Shown piece after piece: positions 55,643-64,000 of a stretch of 64,000 bases of DNA. The notes below the pieces were generated by a model. The model was not told the DNA's origin. It searched no databases and saw nothing but the letters and a program-made list of their open reading frames with translations. The stretch comes from Methylovorus glucosotrophus (GTDB lineage Bacteria; Pseudomonadota; Gammaproteobacteria; Burkholderiales; Methylophilaceae). Each line of letters begins with the position of its first letter. Position 1 is the first letter of the stretch. The stretch lies in NCBI RefSeq assembly GCF_009858335.1, contig NZ_VMSE01000001.1, positions 2,108,001 through 2,172,000 on the forward strand. Reading direction: 5' to 3'. The position numbers were made by a program, and so were the translations under genes.

Positions 55643-58147
55643 ATGTATCACCACGACCAGACCAAGCCTGCTTCACCTGCGACTGCCGCACGCTTCCCCA
55701 AGATGCGCCCACTGGCATTCGCCATTCACCTGCTCATGCTCGAGGGCGCGCTCGCCCTTGGCGTATGGGCGCCTCCAGCCCACGCACAAACCAGCGGCGC
55801 CCAGAGCCTGCGCACGTATGACATTCCCGCCGGGCCGCTCAGCGTCGCATTGACCCGATTTTCGCGCGAATCCGGGATATACCTGGTCGGGGCTGGCGAG
55901 ATAATCGAAGGCAAGACCAGCGAGGGATTGAAGGGTAATTTTAATGTGGAGGATGGCTTGGCAAGGCTGCTGGCCGGAAGCGGGCTTGAGGCATACCGGC
56001 AGGCCGATGGCAGTTATGGCATGCGGGCGGTAGCGGTCAAAGCCGCAAGCACGCGCAAGGATGACGTGTCTACCTTACCGCTTGTGGCCGTCACAGCAAA
56101 TGCAGAACGGCCTGATGGCTTGCCCGCCGCCTATGCTGGAGACCAGGTCGCCCGTGGCAGCCGTCTGGGACTGCTGGGCAACAAGGATGTGCTGGATACG
56201 CCATTCAACACCACGAGTTACACCGCCGAACTGATGGAAAACCAGCAGGCGATCACCGCTGCGGATGTGGTGCTCAACGACCCTTCCGTGCGCACGGTGT
56301 CTTACAGCCTGACCAACGCGGCCGCTGGCGGGGATATTTTCCTGATACGCGGATTTTCGGTTCAGGATTCCGTGCTGTTTGATGGCATCAGCGGCATCGC
56401 ATCCAATCGCGCTGCCCCGGTAGAGATGGCGGAGCGCATCGAGGTGCTGAAAGGCCCGAGCGCCCTCCTGAACGGCATGGCGCCAGGCGCGGGCGGAGCT
56501 GTCGGCGGCACCATCAATATGGTACCCAAGCGGGCGGATGACAAACCCCTGACCCGACTGACGGCCACCTATATGTCCAATAGCAACTTCGGTGGTCATG
56601 TCGATATCGGGCGGCGCTTTGGCGAGGATAATGCCTGGGGCATCCGCTTCAATGGCGTATATCGCGACGGCAAAAATGCCACCGCCGGGCAATCGGTTGA
56701 ACTGGGCGCAGCCACCATCGGCATTGATTACCGCGGCAATCGTCTGCGGGCATCGCTGGATGCCGGGCATCAGACCATGAACAACGAAGCTCCTCAGGGC
56801 GCAGCTGGTTTCGGCATTGCCGACGGCATCACCATCCCCTCTCCGCCCAGCGCCAAAAAACGGATTGCCCAGGATTGGGAGTATGCCAACTCCAAAAGCA
56901 ATTATCTGCTGGCAAAAGCCGAGTATGACCTCACCCCCACCTGGACCCTCTACGGCGCAGCAGGCGGCAGCAATACCATCTCGAGTTATCTTTCCACCGA
57001 CGTCAGCGTGGCCGATGCCCAGGGCAATGCGCAAGCCACCGTGTACTACTGGCCCAACTGGACGAATTACCGCACTGCACAGGGCGGTGTGCGTGGCAAT
57101 TTCAGCACGGGCGCGGTTAGCCATCAGCTCAACATCAGCGCCAACTACCTGATGAAAGATAGCGGCTATACGGCCGACTATTATGGCTTCAGCAGTTTTG
57201 CTACCAACATCTACAACCCGCCCAGTGTTAGCCGCCCATCCACTGCCGGCATGGACTCCCACCCGGACAAGACCAACCGCCTGCAGCTGCCATCTCTGGC
57301 CGTGGCCGACACCCTGGGCTTTCTTGATGACAGACTCACCGTTACCCTGGGGGGACGTTATCAGCGCGTAGAAGTGATTGACTACAGCAGCACCGGGGAA
57401 AGCACCACCTCCTATGACAAGCATGCCGTGACTCCGGTGCTGGCTGCCGTGTGGAAACCCGGTGCAAACTGGTCCATCTACAGCAATTACATAGAAGGGC
57501 TGACGCAAGGCGACACTGCGCCTATCGGCACCACCAATGCAGGCAAGGTGTTCCCTCCGGTGAAGACCAAGCAACACGAAGTCGGGGTGAAATACGATTT
57601 TGGCCGCTTCACTACGTCGCTTAGCACCTTCCAGATTGAAAAACCAAGCGGGCTGACGGTTTCCAATGGCGATGGCACCTCGACCTACCAGGTAGGAGGA
57701 GAACAACGCAATCGCGGTATTGAGCTGAATGTGTTCGGCGAAGTTCAGGGCGTGCGCCTGCTTGGCGGGGCGACTTACATCCAGCCCAAACTCACGCATG
57801 CGAGCAGCGACGCTTATGACGGCAACACCGCGCCCAACGTCTCGCGCTGGCAGCTGAACCTGGGCAGCGAATATGATCTTTCGCTGGTGCCAGGCATGAC
57901 CCTCACCGCCCGCATGATGTCAACCAGCGCCCAGTATCTGGATGAAGCCAATACACGCAGCATTCCGGGCTGGACTCGCTGGGACGTCGGTGCTCGCTAC
58001 AAAACCACCGCGGCCGAACGGCCATTGGTCCTGAGACTGGGAATACAGAATCTGTTTGGTCGCGACTACTGGAGCAGCAGCTCCGGCAGCTGGTTATATC
58101 TTGGCCAGCCGCGCACCGTAATGCTATCGGCCACCATGGATTTTTAG
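55643..58147 (+). CDS. TonB-dependent siderophore receptor with signalling domain (module 3)
   Basis: An 834-residue receptor from the ATG at 55643 (GAAGGA upstream). Signal peptide (LLMLEGALALGVWAPPAHA), STN domain (RTYDIPAGPLSVALTRFSRESGIYLVGAGEIIEGKTSEGLKG), plug (LDTPFNTTSYTAELMENQQAITAADVVLNDPSVR, MAERIEVLKGPSALLNGMAPGAGGAVGGTINMVPKR) and barrel ending VMLSATMDF. It is a paralogue of receptor 2. This module has no PepSY gene. Ligand unknown. Confidence 0.94.
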   Translation: MYHHDQTKPASPATAARFPKMRPLAFAIHLLMLEGALALGVWAPPAHAQTSGAQSLRTYDIPAGPLSVALTRFSRESGIYLVGAGEIIEGKTSEGLKGNFNVEDGLARLLAGSGLEAYRQADGSYGMRAVAVKAASTRKDDVSTLPLVAVTANAERPDGLPAAYAGDQVARGSRLGLLGNKDVLDTPFNTTSYTAELMENQQAITAADVVLNDPSVRTVSYSLTNAAAGGDIFLIRGFSVQDSVLFDGISGIASNRAAPVEMAERIEVLKGPSALLNGMAPGAGGAVGGTINMVPKRADDKPLTRLTATYMSNSNFGGHVDIGRRFGEDNAWGIRFNGVYRDGKNATAGQSVELGAATIGIDYRGNRLRASLDAGHQTMNNEAPQGAAGFGIADGITIPSPPSAKKRIAQDWEYANSKSNYLLAKAEYDLTPTWTLYGAAGGSNTISSYLSTDVSVADAQGNAQATVYYWPNWTNYRTAQGGVRGNFSTGAVSHQLNISANYLMKDSGYTADYYGFSSFATNIYNPPSVSRPSTAGMDSHPDKTNRLQLPSLAVADTLGFLDDRLTVTLGGRYQRVEVIDYSSTGESTTSYDKHAVTPVLAAVWKPGANWSIYSNYIEGLTQGDTAPIGTTNAGKVFPPVKTKQHEVGVKYDFGRFTTSLSTFQIEKPSGLTVSNGDGTSTYQVGGEQRNRGIELNVFGEVQGVRLLGGATYIQPKLTHASSDAYDGNTAPNVSRWQLNLGSEYDLSLVPGMTLTARMMSTSAQYLDEANTRSIPGWTRWDVGARYKTTAAERPLVLRLGIQNLFGRDYWSSSSGSWLYLGQPRTVMLSATMDF

Positions 58148-58253
58148 GTTAAAGCAGGCTGGGTATCATCAAGTATGGCGCACGATGCCCAGCCTCCGGC
58201 AACCCGATTGTGATGTCTGGCAACAGGCGGCTGCTTCGCGATCAATAGTGAGC

Positions 58254-59030
58254 TCACATGCCCGGCATGATCCAGCCATAAAGCACTTTCCCCGTTTCAC
58301 CAATAGGCTGCTGCAATGCGGGCGGTAGGCCCGGTATTTCAAATTCATAGCTGATCAGCAGGCTGCCCGGCTGCATCTCGGCACTCGCCTTTTGCCACAG
58401 CGCGGGCATGGCCGCGGGTGACAGATAGGCAAACACCACATCAAATTCCCGAAAGTCCAGCTTGTGGTAATCCCCCAGCACAAAGCGGGCGGAGGATCTG
58501 CGCCAGCGTCCACGCGCATGGCTGATCAGCCATGGCAGCGGGGCCACTTCAATGCCGAGCATCTGGCAGTCGGGGCGCACCTTGGCGATGTGCATGGCCA
58601 TGTCACCGAGCCCGCTGCCTATATCAATCATGCGCAAGCCCTGCCGCGCTGGCATCCACGCCAGCACTTGCCGCCACACTGCCGGAAAGGAGGGGTAAAA
58701 CGGTACCTGTGTGCGAAATGTGGTCCAGAACAGCATCAGGCTAAACAAGAATCCAGCCAGGTACACCCAGTTGGGAAGATGCAGCTGCACCATGAGCCAG
58801 ACGACCAGCGAAAAAAAGAGATGGATGAGGCGCCACCACGAGGCCATGCCCCAGAGTCGGGCCAATACATAAGCTCCTACCGCTTGTATCAGCACCAGCA
58901 ACCAGAAGGGATATACGCGCCCGGTGAGCTGGCCAAACAGCAAGGCAATGAGTAAATTGATGCCCAGCATGCCCAGTTGTATCAGCAAGGCAAGGGTTGC
59001 GGGCAATACACGAGGAGATTCAGATGCCAT
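58254..59030 (-). CDS. Membrane-anchored class I SAM methyltransferase-like protein
   Basis: A 258-residue protein. The N-terminal 100 residues form four to five membrane helices (LALLIQLGMLGINLLIALLFG, PFWLLVLIQAVGAYVLA, LIHLFFSLVVWLMVQL, YLAGFLFSLMLFW). The C-terminal half is a Rossmann-type methyltransferase: MIDIGSGLGDMAMHIAK (motif I), MLGIEVAPLPWLI (motif II) and VVFAYLSPAAMPALW (motif IV region). The substrate is unknown; a lipid or membrane-close molecule is likely from topology. It lies downstream of flhC on the same strand but 265 bp away. Confidence 0.82.
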   Translation of the reverse strand: MASESPRVLPATLALLIQLGMLGINLLIALLFGQLTGRVYPFWLLVLIQAVGAYVLARLWGMASWWRLIHLFFSLVVWLMVQLHLPNWVYLAGFLFSLMLFWTTFRTQVPFYPSFPAVWRQVLAWMPARQGLRMIDIGSGLGDMAMHIAKVRPDCQMLGIEVAPLPWLISHARGRWRRSSARFVLGDYHKLDFREFDVVFAYLSPAAMPALWQKASAEMQPGSLLISYEFEIPGLPPALQQPIGETGKVLYGWIMPGM

Positions 59031-59295
59031 GGAGAACGCCAGGCAGGTTTAGAAAAGACGGGGTGATGAACAAGGGACAATGACTGTCAGCTGACAGAAA
59101 ATCACCCGGCCGGATGGCAGGCGCCACGACATGGCTTGAGCCTGCGCAGGCAAATACCTCTCGGGGTAATGTCGCTTGCTGTTGATGTTGCTTGTTTGCG
59201 TAATTCACCCTACCCCCGATCAAGCGCCCTGGCGCGCGGGGCGCTATTCACTGGCGGTGTGGTGATACCTCAACAGCGCGAATTTGCCCGGCGCC
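59031..59295. other. Gap between flhC and the methyltransferase gene
   Basis: 265 bp without a gene. AGCGCC (59223-59228) and GGCGCT (59240-59245) form a GC-rich hairpin past the flhC stop, without a T tract. Confidence 0.4.
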
Positions 59296-59835
59296 TCAGG
59301 CGGCAGCCATTTCCCTGGTTTTTTTGGTTTTGCCAGCACGCGATGGTACATGGCACAAGCTGCAGGCAAAGTGTTGATTCAAGTCATACACATTCACCAC
59401 AAAGTGGCCGCCGCAGCAGCTGCAGGCTTGCAGCTTGAGCATCTTGCTCTCGACAAATCTTACCAGAGTCCAGGCGCGGGTGAGCGACAGCACGGCAGTT
59501 TCGGGATCTTCGGTACCGGTTTCATCCAGATACAGCTGGTAGGCCTTGATCACGGCGGTTATGCCGTTCACATCCGTATGTTCCCGCATGAAATTGTAAA
59601 TATTCAGGAACATGGAGGAGTGAATGTTGGGCTGCCAGGTCAGGAACCAGTCGGTGGAAAACGGCAGCATGCCCTTGGGTGGCGATACGCCTTTCAGCTC
59701 CTTGTACAACTTGATCAGGCGCTCACGGGACAAGGTCGTCTGCGATTCCAGCAGTTGCAACCGTGCGCCCAGCGTGATCAGCTGTATCGCCAACTGGATT
59801 TGTTGTGCTTCGTTAACTACGCTTTTCTTTTCCAT
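59296..59835 (-). CDS. flhC: Flagellar transcriptional activator subunit FlhC
   Basis: A 179-residue FlhC read from the ATG at 59835; a TTG eight codons earlier is less likely. Helical core ([69 protein letters not shown]) and the zinc cluster [24 protein letters not shown] with four cysteines. With FlhD it forms the FlhD4C2 activator that starts the flagellar cascade. It follows flhD after 52 bp. Confidence 0.96.
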
Positions 59836-59887
59836 GATAATGCCTGCCTTCTTGATCAATTTGCCGGAGCGGCGCTTTCCAAAAACC

Positions 59888-60205
59888 TTAAGCCATTGCC
59901 TCAGGCGCCTGGCCTGCCATCAGGATGGCGGCATGCGCGCTGGCAAGGTGACGATCCTTGGTGTAGCTGGTCAGCATGTTCAGAATGGCGCAGTCGTCGA
60001 AGCGAAAGCGGGCAAGCATCATGTTGGTGCTGGAGAGTTTGAGCAATTGAGCGGTAGTCAGGCTTTCCAGAACATCCGCGATTTCTTTGCTGACGCCCAG
60101 ACGGAAGATGGCGGAAGCCTTGTCGGAGCGAATCATTTGTTGGGCGAGCATCAGGTAGCTCAGGTTGGCGTCTTTGATGTCAGACATCATGTCTTTTTCA
60201 GTCAT
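59888..60205 (-). CDS. flhD: Flagellar transcriptional activator subunit FlhD
   Basis: A 105-residue Flh[63 protein letters not shown] matches the family closely. The Shine-Dalgarno GAGGG (60213-60217) is seven bases before the ATG and directly preceded by CA repeats (60216-60237), which are complementary to GU-rich RNA that would be made from sigma-28 sites upstream. A long regulatory gap lies upstream. Confidence 0.96.
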
Positions 60206-60326
60206 TTTGGGTCCCTCGTGTGTGTGTGCGCTGTGTGTGGGGCGCGTGAGACGTACTTTGAACCTAAAGGGATGCGGGCATAACTGGAGTCTGTCGGTTT
60301 TTTGCGTAAGACGCGAAGACGCGCAA

Positions 60327-60357
60327 ATGTAGGCGTTTGTCTTACAAACGCCTACAT
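60327..60357. promoter_or_regulatory. Perfect 14-bp inverted repeat in the flhD leader
   Basis: ATGTAGGCGTTTGT-CTT-ACAAACGCCTACAT, 14 bp with a three-base loop, 122-152 bp before the flhD ATG. No T tract follows on the minus strand. It can be an RNA hairpin or a dimeric operator. Confidence 0.65.
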
Positions 60358-60493
60358 CCGGCTGGGATACTTGACTGATTTTGAGCTTAAGCCTTTTAAA
60401 ATCAAAGAGCTATAAGCTTTACTACTTTACTGCACACATCGGGTAGGCGCTAAAAGCAGCCTGACACACACACGATTTACTACACACACTTCC

Positions 60494-60520
60494 ATTACGG
60501 CACGCCTGAGAAAAACTTTA
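60494..60520 (-). promoter_or_regulatory. Sigma-28 promoter match 1 (nearest flhD)
   Basis: Minus strand TAAAGTTT-N11-GCCGTAAT; perfect -35, six of eight... positions GCCG and A fit the -10 consensus GCCGATAA imperfectly. RNA from here would run toward flhD, about 280 nt upstream of its ATG, starting with GU repeats. Confidence 0.6.
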
Positions 60521-60683
60521 GCGCTTACCTGGAATGCATCATAAACAATTTGATAAGTTGTTGTTTATAAAAACCTTAATTTTTACACAACCTTACACAA
60601 GTTTACGATTGTCAGATTTGTTAAAGCCACACACTTCAACAAACCACACCACCACACACACTACTGGACTACACACAAAGGAT

Positions 60684-60710
60684 TTATCGGCCCGGCTTTT
60701 AAAAACTTTA
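60684..60710 (-). promoter_or_regulatory. Sigma-28 promoter match 2 (perfect)
   Basis: Minus strand TAAAGTTT-N11-GCCGATAA, identical to the FliA consensus in both boxes and spacer length. Directed toward flhD. It lies exactly 190 bp from match 1. Confidence 0.78.
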
Positions 60711-60789
60711 GGGATTTTTTTAAAAAATTAGAATTAATTTGATAACTCATTGTTTCAATTAACCTAATTTTATTAAAAAATCCCTAAAG
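60706..60789. repeat. 84-bp imperfect inverted repeat
   Basis: CTTTAGGGATTTTTTTAA at the left pairs with ATTAAAAAATCCCTAAAG at the right (one bulged A), with AT-rich inner arms (AATTAGAATTAA / TTAACCTAATT) also partly paired. It begins in the -35 box of sigma-28 match 2 and ends upstream of it, in the transcribed tail of repeat unit 3. Confidence 0.7.
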
Positions 60790-60873
60790 CCAGGCTGCTG
60801 CTACACACACCAACATACGCACTACGCGCCGCCAACCCCTTGAAGACGCATTAATCCGTATCACACAAATGGT

Positions 60874-60900
60874 CTATCGGCTGGCTTCAGGAAAACTTTA
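60874..60900 (-). promoter_or_regulatory. Sigma-28 promoter match 3
   Basis: Minus strand TAAAGTTT-N11-GCCGATAG, one mismatch to consensus at the last -10 base. It lies exactly 190 bp from match 2 and shares flanking sequence with it (CACACAAA before, GGATTTTTTTAAA after, in plus-strand reading). Confidence 0.73.
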
Positions 60901-61044
60901 GGATTTTTTTAAATTATTTTTAATAAAATTAATATGTATTTGTTTTATATATATTTTTATTTTCAATTTTTTTAAAAATCTGTACTGAATCTTCTCAAGT
61001 CCACCATCGCCATTGGAATTAAGCATGGGTTTACCCCTTTTATT

Positions 61045-61060
61045 CATGGAATGCTCCATG
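61045..61060. promoter_or_regulatory. 16-bp palindrome upstream of flhB
   Basis: CATGGA-ATGC-TCCATG; half of it (TGCTCCATG) recurs at 61080-61088. It lies about 80 bp before flhB and may be an operator. No known consensus was matched. Confidence 0.35.
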
Positions 61061-61137
61061 GGGTCAGCCACTGATAATGTGCTCCATGTCAGCGGGACCG
61101 CACATCCCCATCACACACACGGCACACAGGACACGAA

Positions 61138-62292
61138 ATGGCTGAAGACAGCGATTTAGAAAAGACAGAACCGGCGACGCCCAAGCGCCTCGAAAAGGCG
61201 CGCGAGGAAGGTAATGTCCCCCGCTCACGCGAGTTCGTGACCTGTGCAATGTTATTGGCTGGCGGCATGGGCATTGCCATGATGAGTTCGCAGTTTGGTG
61301 ATGCGCTCAAGCACACCATGGGCGGCAGCCTGCATTTTGAGCGCGCCCTGGCCTATGACAGCAATCTGCTGCTCATGAAAATTTCCGACTCTATATATAG
61401 TCTGTTAATCACCTTTGCTCCGCTGGCAGGTTTGCTGTTCATCATGGCGATTGCCGCCCCTACCCTCATTGGTGGCTGGAACGTCAGCAATCAGGCCTTT
61501 GTGCCCAAATTCAACCGCCTCAACCCCGTCAGTGGTTTGGGCAATATGGTCTCCAAAAATGCCCTGGTGGAACTGCTCAAGGCCGTGGGCAAAACCATAC
61601 TGGTGGGCTCGGTGGCGTATGTCGTGGTAGCACATGATGTCGACACCATCCTCTCGCTTGCCCTGTTGCCCTTGCACACCAGCATCGCCGAAGTGGAAGA
61701 CATGCTGCTGAAAAGCTTCTTTTTCATTGTGGGCGCCCTGGTGCTGATTGCCGCGATTGATGTGCCCTACCAGCTCACTACCTATGCCAATAACCTGAAG
61801 ATGACCAAGGAAGAGGTCAAGCAGGAGTCCAAGGAATCCGAAGGCAACCCGCAGATCAAGGCACGTATCCGTCAGCAACAGCGTGAGATTGCCCGCCGCC
61901 GCATGATGTCGGAAATCCCCAAGGCGGATGTCGTCATCACCAACCCGACCCACTACGCCGTGGCTATCCAATATAAGGAGTTGGGCATGCGTGCACCGGT
62001 GGTGATTGCCAAGGGTGCCGATGCCGTGGCCCTGAAGATTCGTGAAGTGGCCGCCGAGCACAAGATCATGACGCTGGAATCCCCCAAGCTGGCACGGGCG
62101 CTTTATGCCCACACCGAGCTGGGCGATGAAATTCCTCAGGCACTGTATTCCGCCGTGGCTGAGATCATCGCTTATGTGTTCCAGATGCGCGCCTTCAACA
62201 AGCATGGCGGCTTCCGCCCTGAAACACCGACCCAACTGGATGTGCCGGATGCACTGGATCCCCATCACAAGCTGACTGAGGTAACAGCCTGA
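61138..62292 (+). CDS. flhB: Flagellar type III secretion protein FlhB
   Basis: A 384-residue export-gate protein that switches substrate class from rod/hook to filament. Basic N-terminus (EKTEPATPKRLEKAREEGNVPRSREF), four membrane helices, and a cytoplasmic domain with the autocleavage site NPTH (VVITNPTHYAVAIQY, near residue 268). Its leader carries CACACACACG (61112-61121) shortly before the AGGA ribosome-binding site. The stop overlaps the flhA start (TGATG). Confidence 0.97.
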   Translation: MAEDSDLEKTEPATPKRLEKAREEGNVPRSREFVTCAMLLAGGMGIAMMSSQFGDALKHTMGGSLHFERALAYDSNLLLMKISDSIYSLLITFAPLAGLLFIMAIAAPTLIGGWNVSNQAFVPKFNRLNPVSGLGNMVSKNALVELLKAVGKTILVGSVAYVVVAHDVDTILSLALLPLHTSIAEVEDMLLKSFFFIVGALVLIAAIDVPYQLTTYANNLKMTKEEVKQESKESEGNPQIKARIRQQQREIARRRMMSEIPKADVVITNPTHYAVAIQYKELGMRAPVVIAKGADAVALKIREVAAEHKIMTLESPKLARALYAHTELGDEIPQALYSAVAEIIAYVFQMRAFNKHGGFRPETPTQLDVPDALDPHHKLTEVTA

Positions 62293-64000
62293 TGAACAAC
62301 TTTGCCCTCAAGGATATCCTGAGTCATCTGGGCGGCCGCACCATCGCCGCCCCGCTGCTGATCGTCATGTTGCTGGCGATGATGATTCTGCCATTGCCTG
62401 CCATCGCACTGGATGTGCTGTTCAGCTTCAACATCGCCCTGTCCATCATGGTGCTGATGATAGGCCTGCAAACATCCAAGCCACTGGACTTCATCGCCTT
62501 CCCGACCGTGCTGCTGGTTAGCACCATGCTGCGCTTGTCATTGAACGTGGCTTCCACCCGCGTGGTGCTGACCGAGGGGCATGCCGGTCCGGATGCTGCA
62601 GGTAAAGTGATCGAAGCCTTCGGCCACTTCCTGATTGGCGGTAACTACACCGTGGGTATCGTGGTGTTCGTGATCCTGACCATCATCAACTTTACCGTGG
62701 TGACCAAGGGTGCTGGCCGGATTGCCGAAGTGGGCGCCCGGTTTACCCTGGACGCGATGCCCGGCAAGCAGATGGCGATTGATGCCGACCTGAATGCCGG
62801 CCTGATCGGTGAAGATGAAGCCCGCCGCCGCCGTTCCGAGATCGGTCAGGAAGCCGAGTTCTACGGCGCCATGGACGGTGCCAGCAAATATGTACGGGGC
62901 GATGCCGTCGCTGGCATCCTGGTCACGGTCATCAATATCGTCGGTGGCCTGATCGTCGGCATGGTGCAGCACGACATGGCCTTTGCCGATGCCATCAAGA
63001 ATTACACCCTGCTGGCGATTGGTGACGGTCTGGTCGCGCAGATTCCTTCGCTGGTGATTTCTGTGGCGGCCGGTGTGGTGGTATCCCGCGTCGCCAATAC
63101 GGAAGACGTCGGCACACAACTGGTGACCCAGCTGTTCTCCAACCCCAAGGTCATTTATGTCACCGCCGCCATTATCGGCAGCATGGGCGCTATTCCTGGC
63201 ATGCCACACTTTGCATTCCTCACGCTGGGTGCCCTGCTTGCCGGTCTGGCCTATTTCGTGGCCGAGAAAAAGAAGAGCGCAGAAGACCCTGTGGTGGCAC
63301 CGCCACCTGTTCCTACCGGCGAGCCTGAAGAGGCTAGCTGGAATGATGTGCTCCCGGTCGATGTCATCGGGCTGGAAGTGGGTTATCGCCTGATTCCGCT
63401 GGTCGACAAAGCCCAGGGTGGCGATCTCTTGAAACGCATCAAAGGCCTGCGCAAGAAATTCGCCCAGGAAGTCGGCTTCCTCGCTCCTACCGTGCACATA
63501 CGCGACAACCTGGAGCTGCGTCCTTCCGGCTATCGCATCACCCTGAAAGGTGTTGAGGTCGGCAGCGGCGAATCCAACCATGGTCAGTTTCTGGCGATCA
63601 ACCCTGGCATGGTCAGTGGCACCCTGCCTGGCACCGCCACCACCGACCCGGCCTTTGGCCTGCCTGCCATCTGGGTGGAATCCACAGTGCGTGATCAGGC
63701 CCAGGCCATGGGTTATACCGTAGTGGATGCCAGCACCGTGGTGGCTACCCACCTGAATCACATCATCACCACCAATGCCGCTGACTTGCTGGGCCGCCAG
63801 GAAGTCCAGCAGCTGCTGGACCATATTGGCAAGGATTCGCCAAAGCTGGTCGAAGACCTGGTGCCCAAGCAATTGCCATTGTCCGTGGTGCAGAAGGTAT
63901 TGCAGAACTTGCTGAGCGAAGGCGTGCACATCCGCGATATGCGCACCATCGTCGAAACCCTGTCCGAATACGCCTCACGCACACAAGACCCAAGCGAGCT
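62292..64000 (+). CDS. flhA: Flagellar type III secretion protein FlhA (3' end outside window)
   Basis: The first 569 residues of an expected about 690. The frame stays open to the window end. It starts at the ATG overlapping the flhB stop. About eight membrane helices (LLIVMLLAMMILPLPAIALDVLFSFNIALSIMVLMIG onward) include the family signature RIAEVGARFTLDAMPGKQMAIDADLNAGLI; the cytoplasmic domain begins near residue 335 (VLPVDVIGLEVGYRLIPLVD). It forms the nonameric export-gate ring that uses proton flow. Confidence 0.97.
   Translation, partial: MNNFALKDILSHLGGRTIAAPLLIVMLLAMMILPLPAIALDVLFSFNIALSIMVLMIGLQTSKPLDFIAFPTVLLVSTMLRLSLNVASTRVVLTEGHAGPDAAGKVIEAFGHFLIGGNYTVGIVVFVILTIINFTVVTKGAGRIAEVGARFTLDAMPGKQMAIDADLNAGLIGEDEARRRRSEIGQEAEFYGAMDGASKYVRGDAVAGILVTVINIVGGLIVGMVQHDMAFADAIKNYTLLAIGDGLVAQIPSLVISVAAGVVVSRVANTEDVGTQLVTQLFSNPKVIYVTAAIIGSMGAIPGMPHFAFLTLGALLAGLAYFVAEKKKSAEDPVVAPPPVPTGEPEEASWNDVLPVDVIGLEVGYRLIPLVDKAQGGDLLKRIKGLRKKFAQEVGFLAPTVHIRDNLELRPSGYRITLKGVEVGSGESNHGQFLAINPGMVSGTLPGTATTDPAFGLPAIWVESTVRDQAQAMGYTVVDASTVVATHLNHIITTNAADLLGRQEVQQLLDHIGKDSPKLVEDLVPKQLPLSVVQKVLQNLLSEGVHIRDMRTIVETLSEYASRTQDPSE

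What the first reader, a model, noticed from the sequence alone, without database searches (positions are those of the whole stretch)
60494..60900. Three sigma-28 promoters in exact 190-bp register, all pointing at flhDC
TAAAGTTT-N11-GCCGATAA-type sites occur on the minus strand at 60494-60520, 60684-60710 (perfect) and 60874-60900. The -35 boxes are 190 and 190 bp apart, and flanking sequence is shared, so this is a degenerate tandem duplication of a promoter unit. FliA normally acts below FlhDC. FliA promoters in front of flhDC would mean feedback onto the master regulator, or a set of repeated FliA-dependent small RNAs. I know of no described case with this layout.
Basis: partly seen in the sequence, partly recalled or inferred. 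Interest (0 to 1): 0.85.

Follow-up and report, generated by a model that had tools for sequence, protein, structure and literature searches.

The report
Late-flagellum promoters feeding back on flhDC
In a methylotrophic bacterium, three copies of a promoter type used by the late flagellum sigma factor FliA point back at the genes for the flagellum master switch, and two of the predicted RNAs begin with a stretch that can pair with the master switch's own message, which suggests an undescribed built-in feedback loop.

Summary
In detail: three sigma-28 (FliA) type sites lie on the flhDC strand at 60900-60874, 60710-60684 and 60520-60494, spaced exactly 190/190 bp. They are not chance. The same motif precedes FlgM-like (0 mismatches) and flagellin (2) ORFs in this genome. 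In the family, 59 of 63 testable flhD upstream regions carry at least one such site (<=3 mismatches) on the flhD strand, against 1.3% of shuffles; Massilia-type loci carry 2-4 tandem copies (17 of 18). The 190-bp register and the copy number are lineage-specific. The gap is a hub: flhDC leaves one side, the flhB...fliA cluster the other. In 22 of 63 loci a second FliA-type site faces the first and points at flhB. New here: in Methylovorus (units B, C) and in Methylovorus sp. MM2 (units 1, 2) the predicted transcript starts are antisense to the flhD leader (28 pairs in MM2; GU against CA repeats in the window), although the paired leader stretches differ almost entirely. A covarying hairpin lies between. 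Best reading: FliA feeds back directly on its master regulator, probably partly by RNA pairing. FliA dependence, pairing and the sign of the feedback are inferred, not shown.

The parts
60874..60900 (-). P_A, distal FliA-type promoter TAAAGTTT-N11-GCCGATAG
   Evidence: 1 mismatch; boxes invariant in three Methylovorus genomes
60684..60710 (-). P_B, middle FliA-type promoter, perfect consensus
   Evidence: 0 mismatches; one of 4 exact matches to TAAAGTTTN11GCCGATA in the genome
60494..60520 (-). P_C, proximal degenerate FliA-type promoter (-10 GCCGTAAT)
   Evidence: 3 mismatches; no variable column in boxes or spacer among three genomes
60644..60682 (-). stretch after the P_B -10 box, antisense to the flhD leader (UCCUUUGUGUGU...GUGUGUGUGG); its first few bases may lie before the transcript start
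   Evidence: (z 4.8)
60457..60475 (-). P_C transcript segment with UCGUGUGUGUGU, a perfect 12-nt complement of the flhD leader
   Evidence: (inverted pair I7)
60212..60249 (-). flhD leader with CA repeats and GAGGGA upstream of ATG; the segment that units B and C can pair with
60318..60366 (-). conserved covarying hairpin (18 modelled pairs) between P_C and flhD
60764..60789 (+). inverted -35/AT-rich arm, probable relic of a convergent FliA promoter pointing at flhB (a complete one is present in 22 of 63 family loci)
   Evidence: inverted pair I1
59888..60205 (-). flhD
   Evidence: PF05247 E 2.1e-44
59296..59859 (-). flhC
   Evidence: PF05280 E 4.6e-90
61138..62292 (+). flhB, first gene of the cluster that leaves the other side of the gap and holds a fliA-type sigma factor gene
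   Evidence: the sigma factor gene lies beyond the window end
61112..61120 (+). CA repeat in the flhB leader, also complementary to the GU-rich units

Best explanation
The three sites are FliA (sigma-28) promoters, diverged tandem copies of a promoter that is near-universal upstream of flhDC in Methylophilaceae and common in Massilia-type relatives. They give the late-stage sigma factor a direct input on the master operon. FliA polymerase starts a few bases (about 5-7, recalled) downstream of each -10 box and runs toward flhDC through the conserved hairpin; no standard terminator was recognised. In Methylovorus (units B and C) and in MM2 (units 1 and 2) the early part of these transcripts resembles an inverted copy of the flhD leader. 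I think it most likely that, once FliA is active, these RNAs pair with the flhD leader, in trans and/or within a long FliA-driven flhDC mRNA, and dampen further FlhD/FlhC synthesis: negative feedback. Shown by sequence: the sites, their conservation, the complementarity, the hairpin covariation. Inferred: FliA dependence (about 0.9), transcription reaching flhD (about 0.65), pairing as a working mechanism in these lineages (about 0.5), negative sign (about 0.5).
For: Exact sites and spacing. Own-genome controls: 0-mismatch site 77 bp before the start of a FlgM-like ORF and 2-mismatch site 106 bp before a flagellin ORF, counted from the start of the -35 box; 2 of 4 exact genome matches lie in this gap. 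Family conservation 59/63 at <=3 mismatches and 52/63 at <=2; shuffles 1.3% and 0.2% of 3150. Over 207 flhD loci, some of them the same genome fetched twice, 190 forward and 51 reverse hits. Two or more copies in 17/18 Massilia-type loci under a looser rule. Boxes 0/48 variable columns against 67/623 in the stretch, p 0.003. Antisense: in a scan of 165 loci blind to the promoters, the three best complementarities to the flhD leader are MM2 (z 8.4), window (4.8) and a congener (4.5); those of MM2 and the window begin within 6 bases of the end of a FliA -10 box. At <=2 mismatches the MM2 motif occurs in its genome only in units 1 and 2 and the flhD leader. MM2 units 1 and 2 and Methylovorus units B and C score highest with their own lineage's leader among 67. 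14 of 15 (CA)4/(GT)4 octamer hits in 64 kb lie in this gap, as GU in the units and CA in the flhD and flhB leaders. Hairpin: 123 cells changed on both sides against 33 in shuffles.
Against: Complementarity to the flhD leader is not general: 9 of 149 sites and 12 of 165 loci reach p<0.05, near chance; two unrelated loci follow at z 4.1 and 3.7. Unit A of the window and MM2 unit 3 show no preference for the own leader. In Methylovorus the match is of low complexity (unit B p 0.017, 0.010 and 0.12 in three genomes). Long-transcript folding hides the flhD ribosome-binding site no more than most shuffled upstream sequences do. The MM2 similarity extends past the leader into the presumed flhD promoter, which fits a DNA inversion-duplication as well as selected pairing. 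No standard terminator defines an sRNA (that scan sees loops of 3-8 only, so the long inverted repeat I1 before P_B was not judged). Genome-wide, the motif at <=2 mismatches is hardly above its reversed control (13 against 10), so weak sites such as P_C need conservation to count. No expression data were seen.
Confidence: 0.6

Rival explanations
1. Plain positive feedback: FliA transcribes flhDC through a long leader and boosts the master operon; the antisense stretches are incidental remnants of an inversion-duplication.
For: Sites are conserved in most of the family without antisense segments; no standard terminator in the gap; the covarying hairpin suggests that RNA is made across the leader.
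Against: Complementarity to two different leaders near the transcript starts, with the own lineage's leader preferred.
Confidence: 0.3
2. Discrete FliA-dependent small RNAs acting in trans on several flagellar mRNAs (flhD, flhB), with no read-through into flhDC.
For: GU-rich units against CA-rich flhD and flhB leaders; sigma-28 sRNAs are known in E. coli and Campylobacter.
Against: No standard terminator found, no credible Rfam match, and CA repeats before ATG are not clearly enriched genome-wide (12 hits against 9 in the reversed control).
Confidence: 0.2
3. Transcriptional interference: the FliA sites exist to collide with or occlude the vegetative flhDC promoter, or each other (convergent pair), and not to make a functional RNA.
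For: Convergent FliA-type pairs at a nearly fixed 112-121 bp in 22 of 63 family loci.
Against: In the window the convergent partner has no -10 box; the first 60 nt after the promoters are conserved too (11/180 variable columns against 56/395).
Confidence: 0.15
4. Chance matches in an AT-rich intergenic region.
For: The gap is AT-rich around the boxes; the motif at <=2 mismatches is hardly above its reversed control genome-wide.
Against: Shuffles of the same regions 1.3% against 59 of 63 observed; strand bias; present also in Massilia-type loci, in which no FlhB match was found.
Confidence: 0.02

Closest known systems
FliA (sigma-28) class 3 promoters of E. coli
   Same: Same -35/-10 boxes and 11-nt spacer; the tar site is TAAAGTTT-N11-GCCGATAA (PMC4183435 Table 2, section read).
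   Different: None of the 52 FliA ChIP sites in that E. coli table is assigned to flhD; neighbouring ones listed are inside flhC (for motAB) and in otsA.
Sigma-28-dependent sRNAs of E. coli such as UhpU, MotR and FliX (PMC10578931, passages read)
   Same: FliA-driven RNAs regulate the flagellar cascade; UhpU reaches flhDC indirectly through LrhA.
   Different: UTR-derived, not tandem promoters in the flhDC gap. A passage there lists as base-pairing regulators of flhDC: ArcZ, OmrA, OmrB, OxyS, AsflhD and McaS, none of them among the sigma-28-dependent sRNAs of that paper.
CjNC1/CjNC4 (PMC4626219, abstract and passages) and CJnc170/FlmR (PMC11187230, abstract) of Campylobacter jejuni
   Same: Sigma-28-dependent RNAs; CjNC1 and CjNC4 are paralogs predicted to target flagellar 5' UTRs.
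   Different: CjNC1 and CjNC4 are encoded at two separate places, with a predicted terminator stem-loop; their predicted targets are sigma-54-dependent genes, not flhDC.
Betaproteobacteria_toxic_sRNA (Rfam RF02278)
   Same: A beta-proteobacterial sRNA family; above cut-off in 5 of 7 relatives' genomes searched.
   Different: No match in this genome at E <= 0.001; none at gathering score in the 11 flhDC loci scanned.

Membership tests
FliA (sigma-28) dependent promoter | -35 TAAAGTTT and -10 GCCGATAA with an 11-nt spacer | tested here: met
   0, 1 and 3 mismatches
FliA (sigma-28) dependent promoter | same consensus before known class 3 genes of the same genome | tested here: met
   before FlgM-like (0 mismatches) and flagellin (2) ORFs; identity read from the protein sequence, not scanned against a family library
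FliA (sigma-28) dependent promoter | a fliA gene in the genome | tested here: met
   244-aa sigma-70 r2/r3/r4 protein after an SRP54-type GTPase and a fleN-type ATPase; the name fliA comes from gene order
FliA (sigma-28) dependent promoter | conserved boxes in relatives | tested here: met
   59 of 63; 0/48 variable box columns
FliA (sigma-28) dependent promoter | transcript lost in a fliA mutant | not testable with these tools
   needs dRNA-seq or primer extension
sigma-28-dependent flagellar sRNA | sigma-28 promoter | tested here: met
   by sequence only
sigma-28-dependent flagellar sRNA | discrete 3' end or terminator | tested here: not met
   0 terminator-like sites in 60150-61200, shuffles mean 1.0; loops over 8 nt are not seen by the scan
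sigma-28-dependent flagellar sRNA | complementarity to a flagellar mRNA 5' UTR | tested here: inconclusive
   strong in MM2, moderate in Methylovorus, absent in most others
sigma-28-dependent flagellar sRNA | regulation by pairing (compensatory mutants) | not testable with these tools
   bench work
Rfam RF02278 | covariance-model match | tested here: not met
   not among the matches of window 58000-62500 at E<=10; none in own genome at E <= 0.001 (whose control genomes did not ring; one search shows that the search works)

The most novel reading that the evidence does not exclude
A self-targeting feedback RNA born by inversion: FliA promoters upstream of flhDC drive transcripts whose early part is an inverted copy of the flhD leader, so the late sigma factor silences its master regulator by RNA pairing (in trans, or by making a long flhDC mRNA that folds on its own leader), and the antisense segment tracks the rapidly changing flhD leader between lineages.
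Probability: 0.35. Interest if true: 0.85.

Novelty: new variant of a known kind. Interest (0 to 1): 0.66.

Why it matters
In the enteric model flhDC is the sole class 1 operon and FliA acts below it. Conserved FliA promoters facing flhDC, and in a third of the family loci examined also facing the fliA operon, would close the cascade into a direct loop in several groups of beta-proteobacteria, with consequences for switch-like behaviour and shut-off of flagellum synthesis. The antisense leader copies would add a simple route by which a bacterial operon acquires its own regulatory RNA.

Tried and rejected
Rfam: nothing credible in the region or, apart from one tRNA, in 11 relatives' loci. RF02278, suspected from memory, was rejected for this locus. 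General antisense pairing with flhD leaders across the family: rejected, near chance outside Methylovorus and MM2. Self-silencing by a long leader: a first look without controls seemed to favour it, but against shuffled upstream sequence the ribosome-binding site is not clearly more hidden (shuffles at or below the real value, window: 4/25, 10/25, 5/40 from P_A, P_B, P_C; congeners 2/25, 1/25, 10/40 and 0/25, 15/25, 4/40; MM2 11/25, 34/40, 28/40). Pairing of the whole leader beat every shuffle only for MM2 units 1 and 2 (0/25, 0/40) and the window's P_A (0/25). The short mRNA start used there was my assumption. Small proteins in the units: no conserved frame by eye (sequences). A first duplex scan with unrestricted loops was too permissive and was replaced. 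In two relatives the third site of the copy count (-181) overlaps the hairpin element and is probably a false positive.

Literature: eight searches. No title or abstract start shown there reports a FliA promoter upstream of flhDC; most papers were seen only as listings. The library is open-access only.

Full report
Observation. The repeat finder sees three copies at exactly 190 and 190 bp. Shared flanks lie mainly upstream of the -35 box (53/76 and 50/78 identical for neighbours, z 2.7 and 3.9) and much less downstream. This is a degenerate tandem duplication of a promoter with its AT-rich upstream part.

Setting. flhD (60205-59888) and flhC (59859-59296) lie downstream of the sites; flhB starts at 61138 on the other strand. 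Beyond the window follow an SRP54-type GTPase (flhF position), a fleN-type ATPase, a sigma factor in the position of fliA, and a MotA/MotB-type pair; names from gene order and Pfam. The flhA assignment between them rests on position and was not scanned. The gap is thus the hub between master operon and sigma-factor operon. The nearest named relative found is Methylovorus mays (FlhC 99% identical), so I take the GTDB family of the window to be Methylophilaceae.

Are they FliA promoters? In this 2.9-Mb genome TAAAGTTT-N11-GCCGATA occurs exactly 4 times: twice here, once before an ORF that reads as FlgM, and once inside an open frame. Two-mismatch sites precede flagellin, a large PAS-repeat-like ORF and a chemoreceptor-like ORF (names read from sequence, no family scan). 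Counted over the genome at <=2 mismatches, however, the motif (13) is hardly above its reversed control (10). E. coli FliA sites have the same form (PMC4183435 Table 2).

Conservation. Of 187 genomes of the family searched, 75 have an FlhC match, 72 of them at E <= 1e-80. I obtained the flhD upstream region of 68 of the 72; 5 were dropped (flhD missing or under 420 nt upstream). Of the remaining 63, the window included, 59 have at least one flhD-strand site with <=3 mismatches within 720 bp and 52 with <=2; shuffles reach this in 1.3% and 0.2% of 3150. The four exceptions are two genomes of genus g22, one of g9, and one of g19 that has runs of N and a site farther out. Over 207 flhD loci, with some genomes counted twice, there are 190 forward and 51 reverse hits. 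With a looser rule (4 mismatches allowed if TAAAGTT is intact), 17 of 18 named Massilia-type loci have two to four sites, 28 of 37 spacings being 73-78 bp; 10 of 13 loci in unnamed family f7 and 6 of 8 in f33 have at least one; 8 of 10 Nitrosospira/Nitrosovibrio loci have one; 0 of 14 Burkholderia/Paraburkholderia and 3 of 39 other order-level loci have any; 0 of 2 genomes of other orders. In the Massilia-type loci no FlhB match was found, so there the sites go with flhDC. Three sites occur in 6 of the 59: Methylovorus (3 of 3 genomes), MM2, and two genomes where the third is doubtful.

A convergent partner. In 22 of 63 family loci a second FliA-type site (<=3 mismatches) faces the first at a nearly fixed 112-121 bp and points at flhB. 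The window keeps an inverted -35 and AT-rich arm (60764-60789, inverted pair I1) at about that distance from P_A but no -10 box.

Constraint. Among three Methylovorus genomes, 0 of 48 box columns vary against 67 of 623 in the stretch (p 0.003); the first 60 nt after the promoters vary in 11 of 180 columns against 56 of 395 in the rest (Fisher p 0.005). Unit A (1/60) and unit C (2/60) are quieter than unit B (8/60), although B has the longer antisense match.

Antisense to the flhD leader. In MM2 units 1 and 2 each can form 28 pairs, wobbles included, with the flhD leader around one bulge (z 8.2 and 5.2), and at <=2 mismatches the motif occurs in the whole MM2 genome only in these three places. 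In the window, unit B pairs over about 40 nt with gaps (UCCUUUGUGUGU with ACACACGAGGGA, the ribosome-binding stretch, and GUGUGUGUGG with the CA run) and unit C has a perfect 12-mer; the first bases of the unit B match may lie before the transcript start. Scanning the whole gap without regard to the promoters in 165 loci, the three best are MM2 (z 8.4), the window (4.8) and a congener (4.5); in MM2 and the window the match begins within 6 bases of the end of a -10 box, in the congener 14 bases later. Among 67 leaders MM2 units 1 and 2 and Methylovorus units B and C score highest with their own lineage's leader; unit A and MM2 unit 3 do not. Of 15 (CA)4/(GT)4 octamer hits in 64 kb, 14 lie in this gap, oriented as GU in the units and CA in the flhD and flhB leaders. 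Against: the rest of the family shows no such pairing (9 of 149 sites p<0.05; 12 of 165 loci), the window's match is of low complexity, CA repeats before ATG are not clearly enriched in the genome (12 against 9), and folding of long transcripts does not hide the ribosome-binding site more than shuffled controls in most cases.

A covarying hairpin. Between P_C and flhD a near-perfect stem-loop (60318-60366 as modelled) is conserved. In 51 family sequences, chosen by the core TTTGTNNGACAAA (which fixes the five innermost pairs), 92.5% of cells pair, 123 cells are changed on both sides against 33 in shuffles and 11-44 in slid versions, and the covariation score is 0.375 against 0.102; the number of pairs with a double change (11 of 18) is not beyond shuffles (mean 9.1, 59 of 500 reach it). 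A covariance model built from these finds it at flhDC in 26 of 61 family genomes, once each apart from the reverse strand; these are 26 of the 30 with a strong FlhC match, and many served to build the model; none of the other 31 has it. In the own genome it occurs only here. This suggests that RNA is made across this stretch; quasi-palindrome repair at the DNA level could also keep arms matched. The terminator scan did not flag it.

Reading. FliA very probably transcribes toward flhDC from these sites. I favour feedback that in Methylovorus and MM2 works at least partly through RNA pairing with the flhD leader. Simple positive feedback by read-through is the main rival and fits the relatives without antisense copies equally well. 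In E. coli the published FliA map assigns no site to flhD, and the sigma-28-dependent sRNAs I saw described (PMC10578931 passages, PMC4626219 abstract and passages, PMC11187230 abstract) are not tandem units in front of flhDC. A transcriptome paper that includes Methylovorus glucosotrophus reports highly transcribed flagellar genes; the terms small RNA, non-coding and intergenic do not occur in its main text (PMC3728764, passages).

Noticed in passing
window 60318-60366 (-): Hairpin of 18 modelled pairs with covariation, found only upstream of flhDC in the 61 family genomes searched; a similar core (TTTGTNNGACAAA) lies at the same place in Massilia-type loci, where the outer arms pair less well. 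No credible Rfam match.
   Followed up: partly
Methylotenera- and Methylophilus-type relatives, e.g. L025, L044, L167, about -290 to -308 from flhD: Convergent FliA-type promoter pointing at the flhB-fliA operon, 112-121 bp from the forward one; would make FliA autoregulatory.
   Followed up: partly
L052-L076 (Massilia-type loci): Arrays of 2-4 FliA-type sites upstream of flhDC, mostly 73-78 bp apart, with a recurring CAGATG(A/C)CCGGGA-like sequence after the -10 box (by eye).
   Followed up: partly
window 60212-60249 and 61112-61120: CA-repeat leaders directly upstream of the flhD and flhB start codons; the function of the CA runs themselves is unknown.
   Followed up: partly
window 60736-60753 and 60546-60563 (-): A recurring ACAAYRASTTATCAAATT-like element about 26-43 bp upstream of the FliA boxes (by eye; similar ones in relatives), possibly a regulator site.
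   Followed up: no
genomes of L058, L061, L064, L086, L091: Rfam RF02278 occurs 3-8 times per genome above the cut-off, dispersed; none in the flhDC loci L058, L086 and L091 scanned (L061 and L064 were not scanned there).
   Followed up: no
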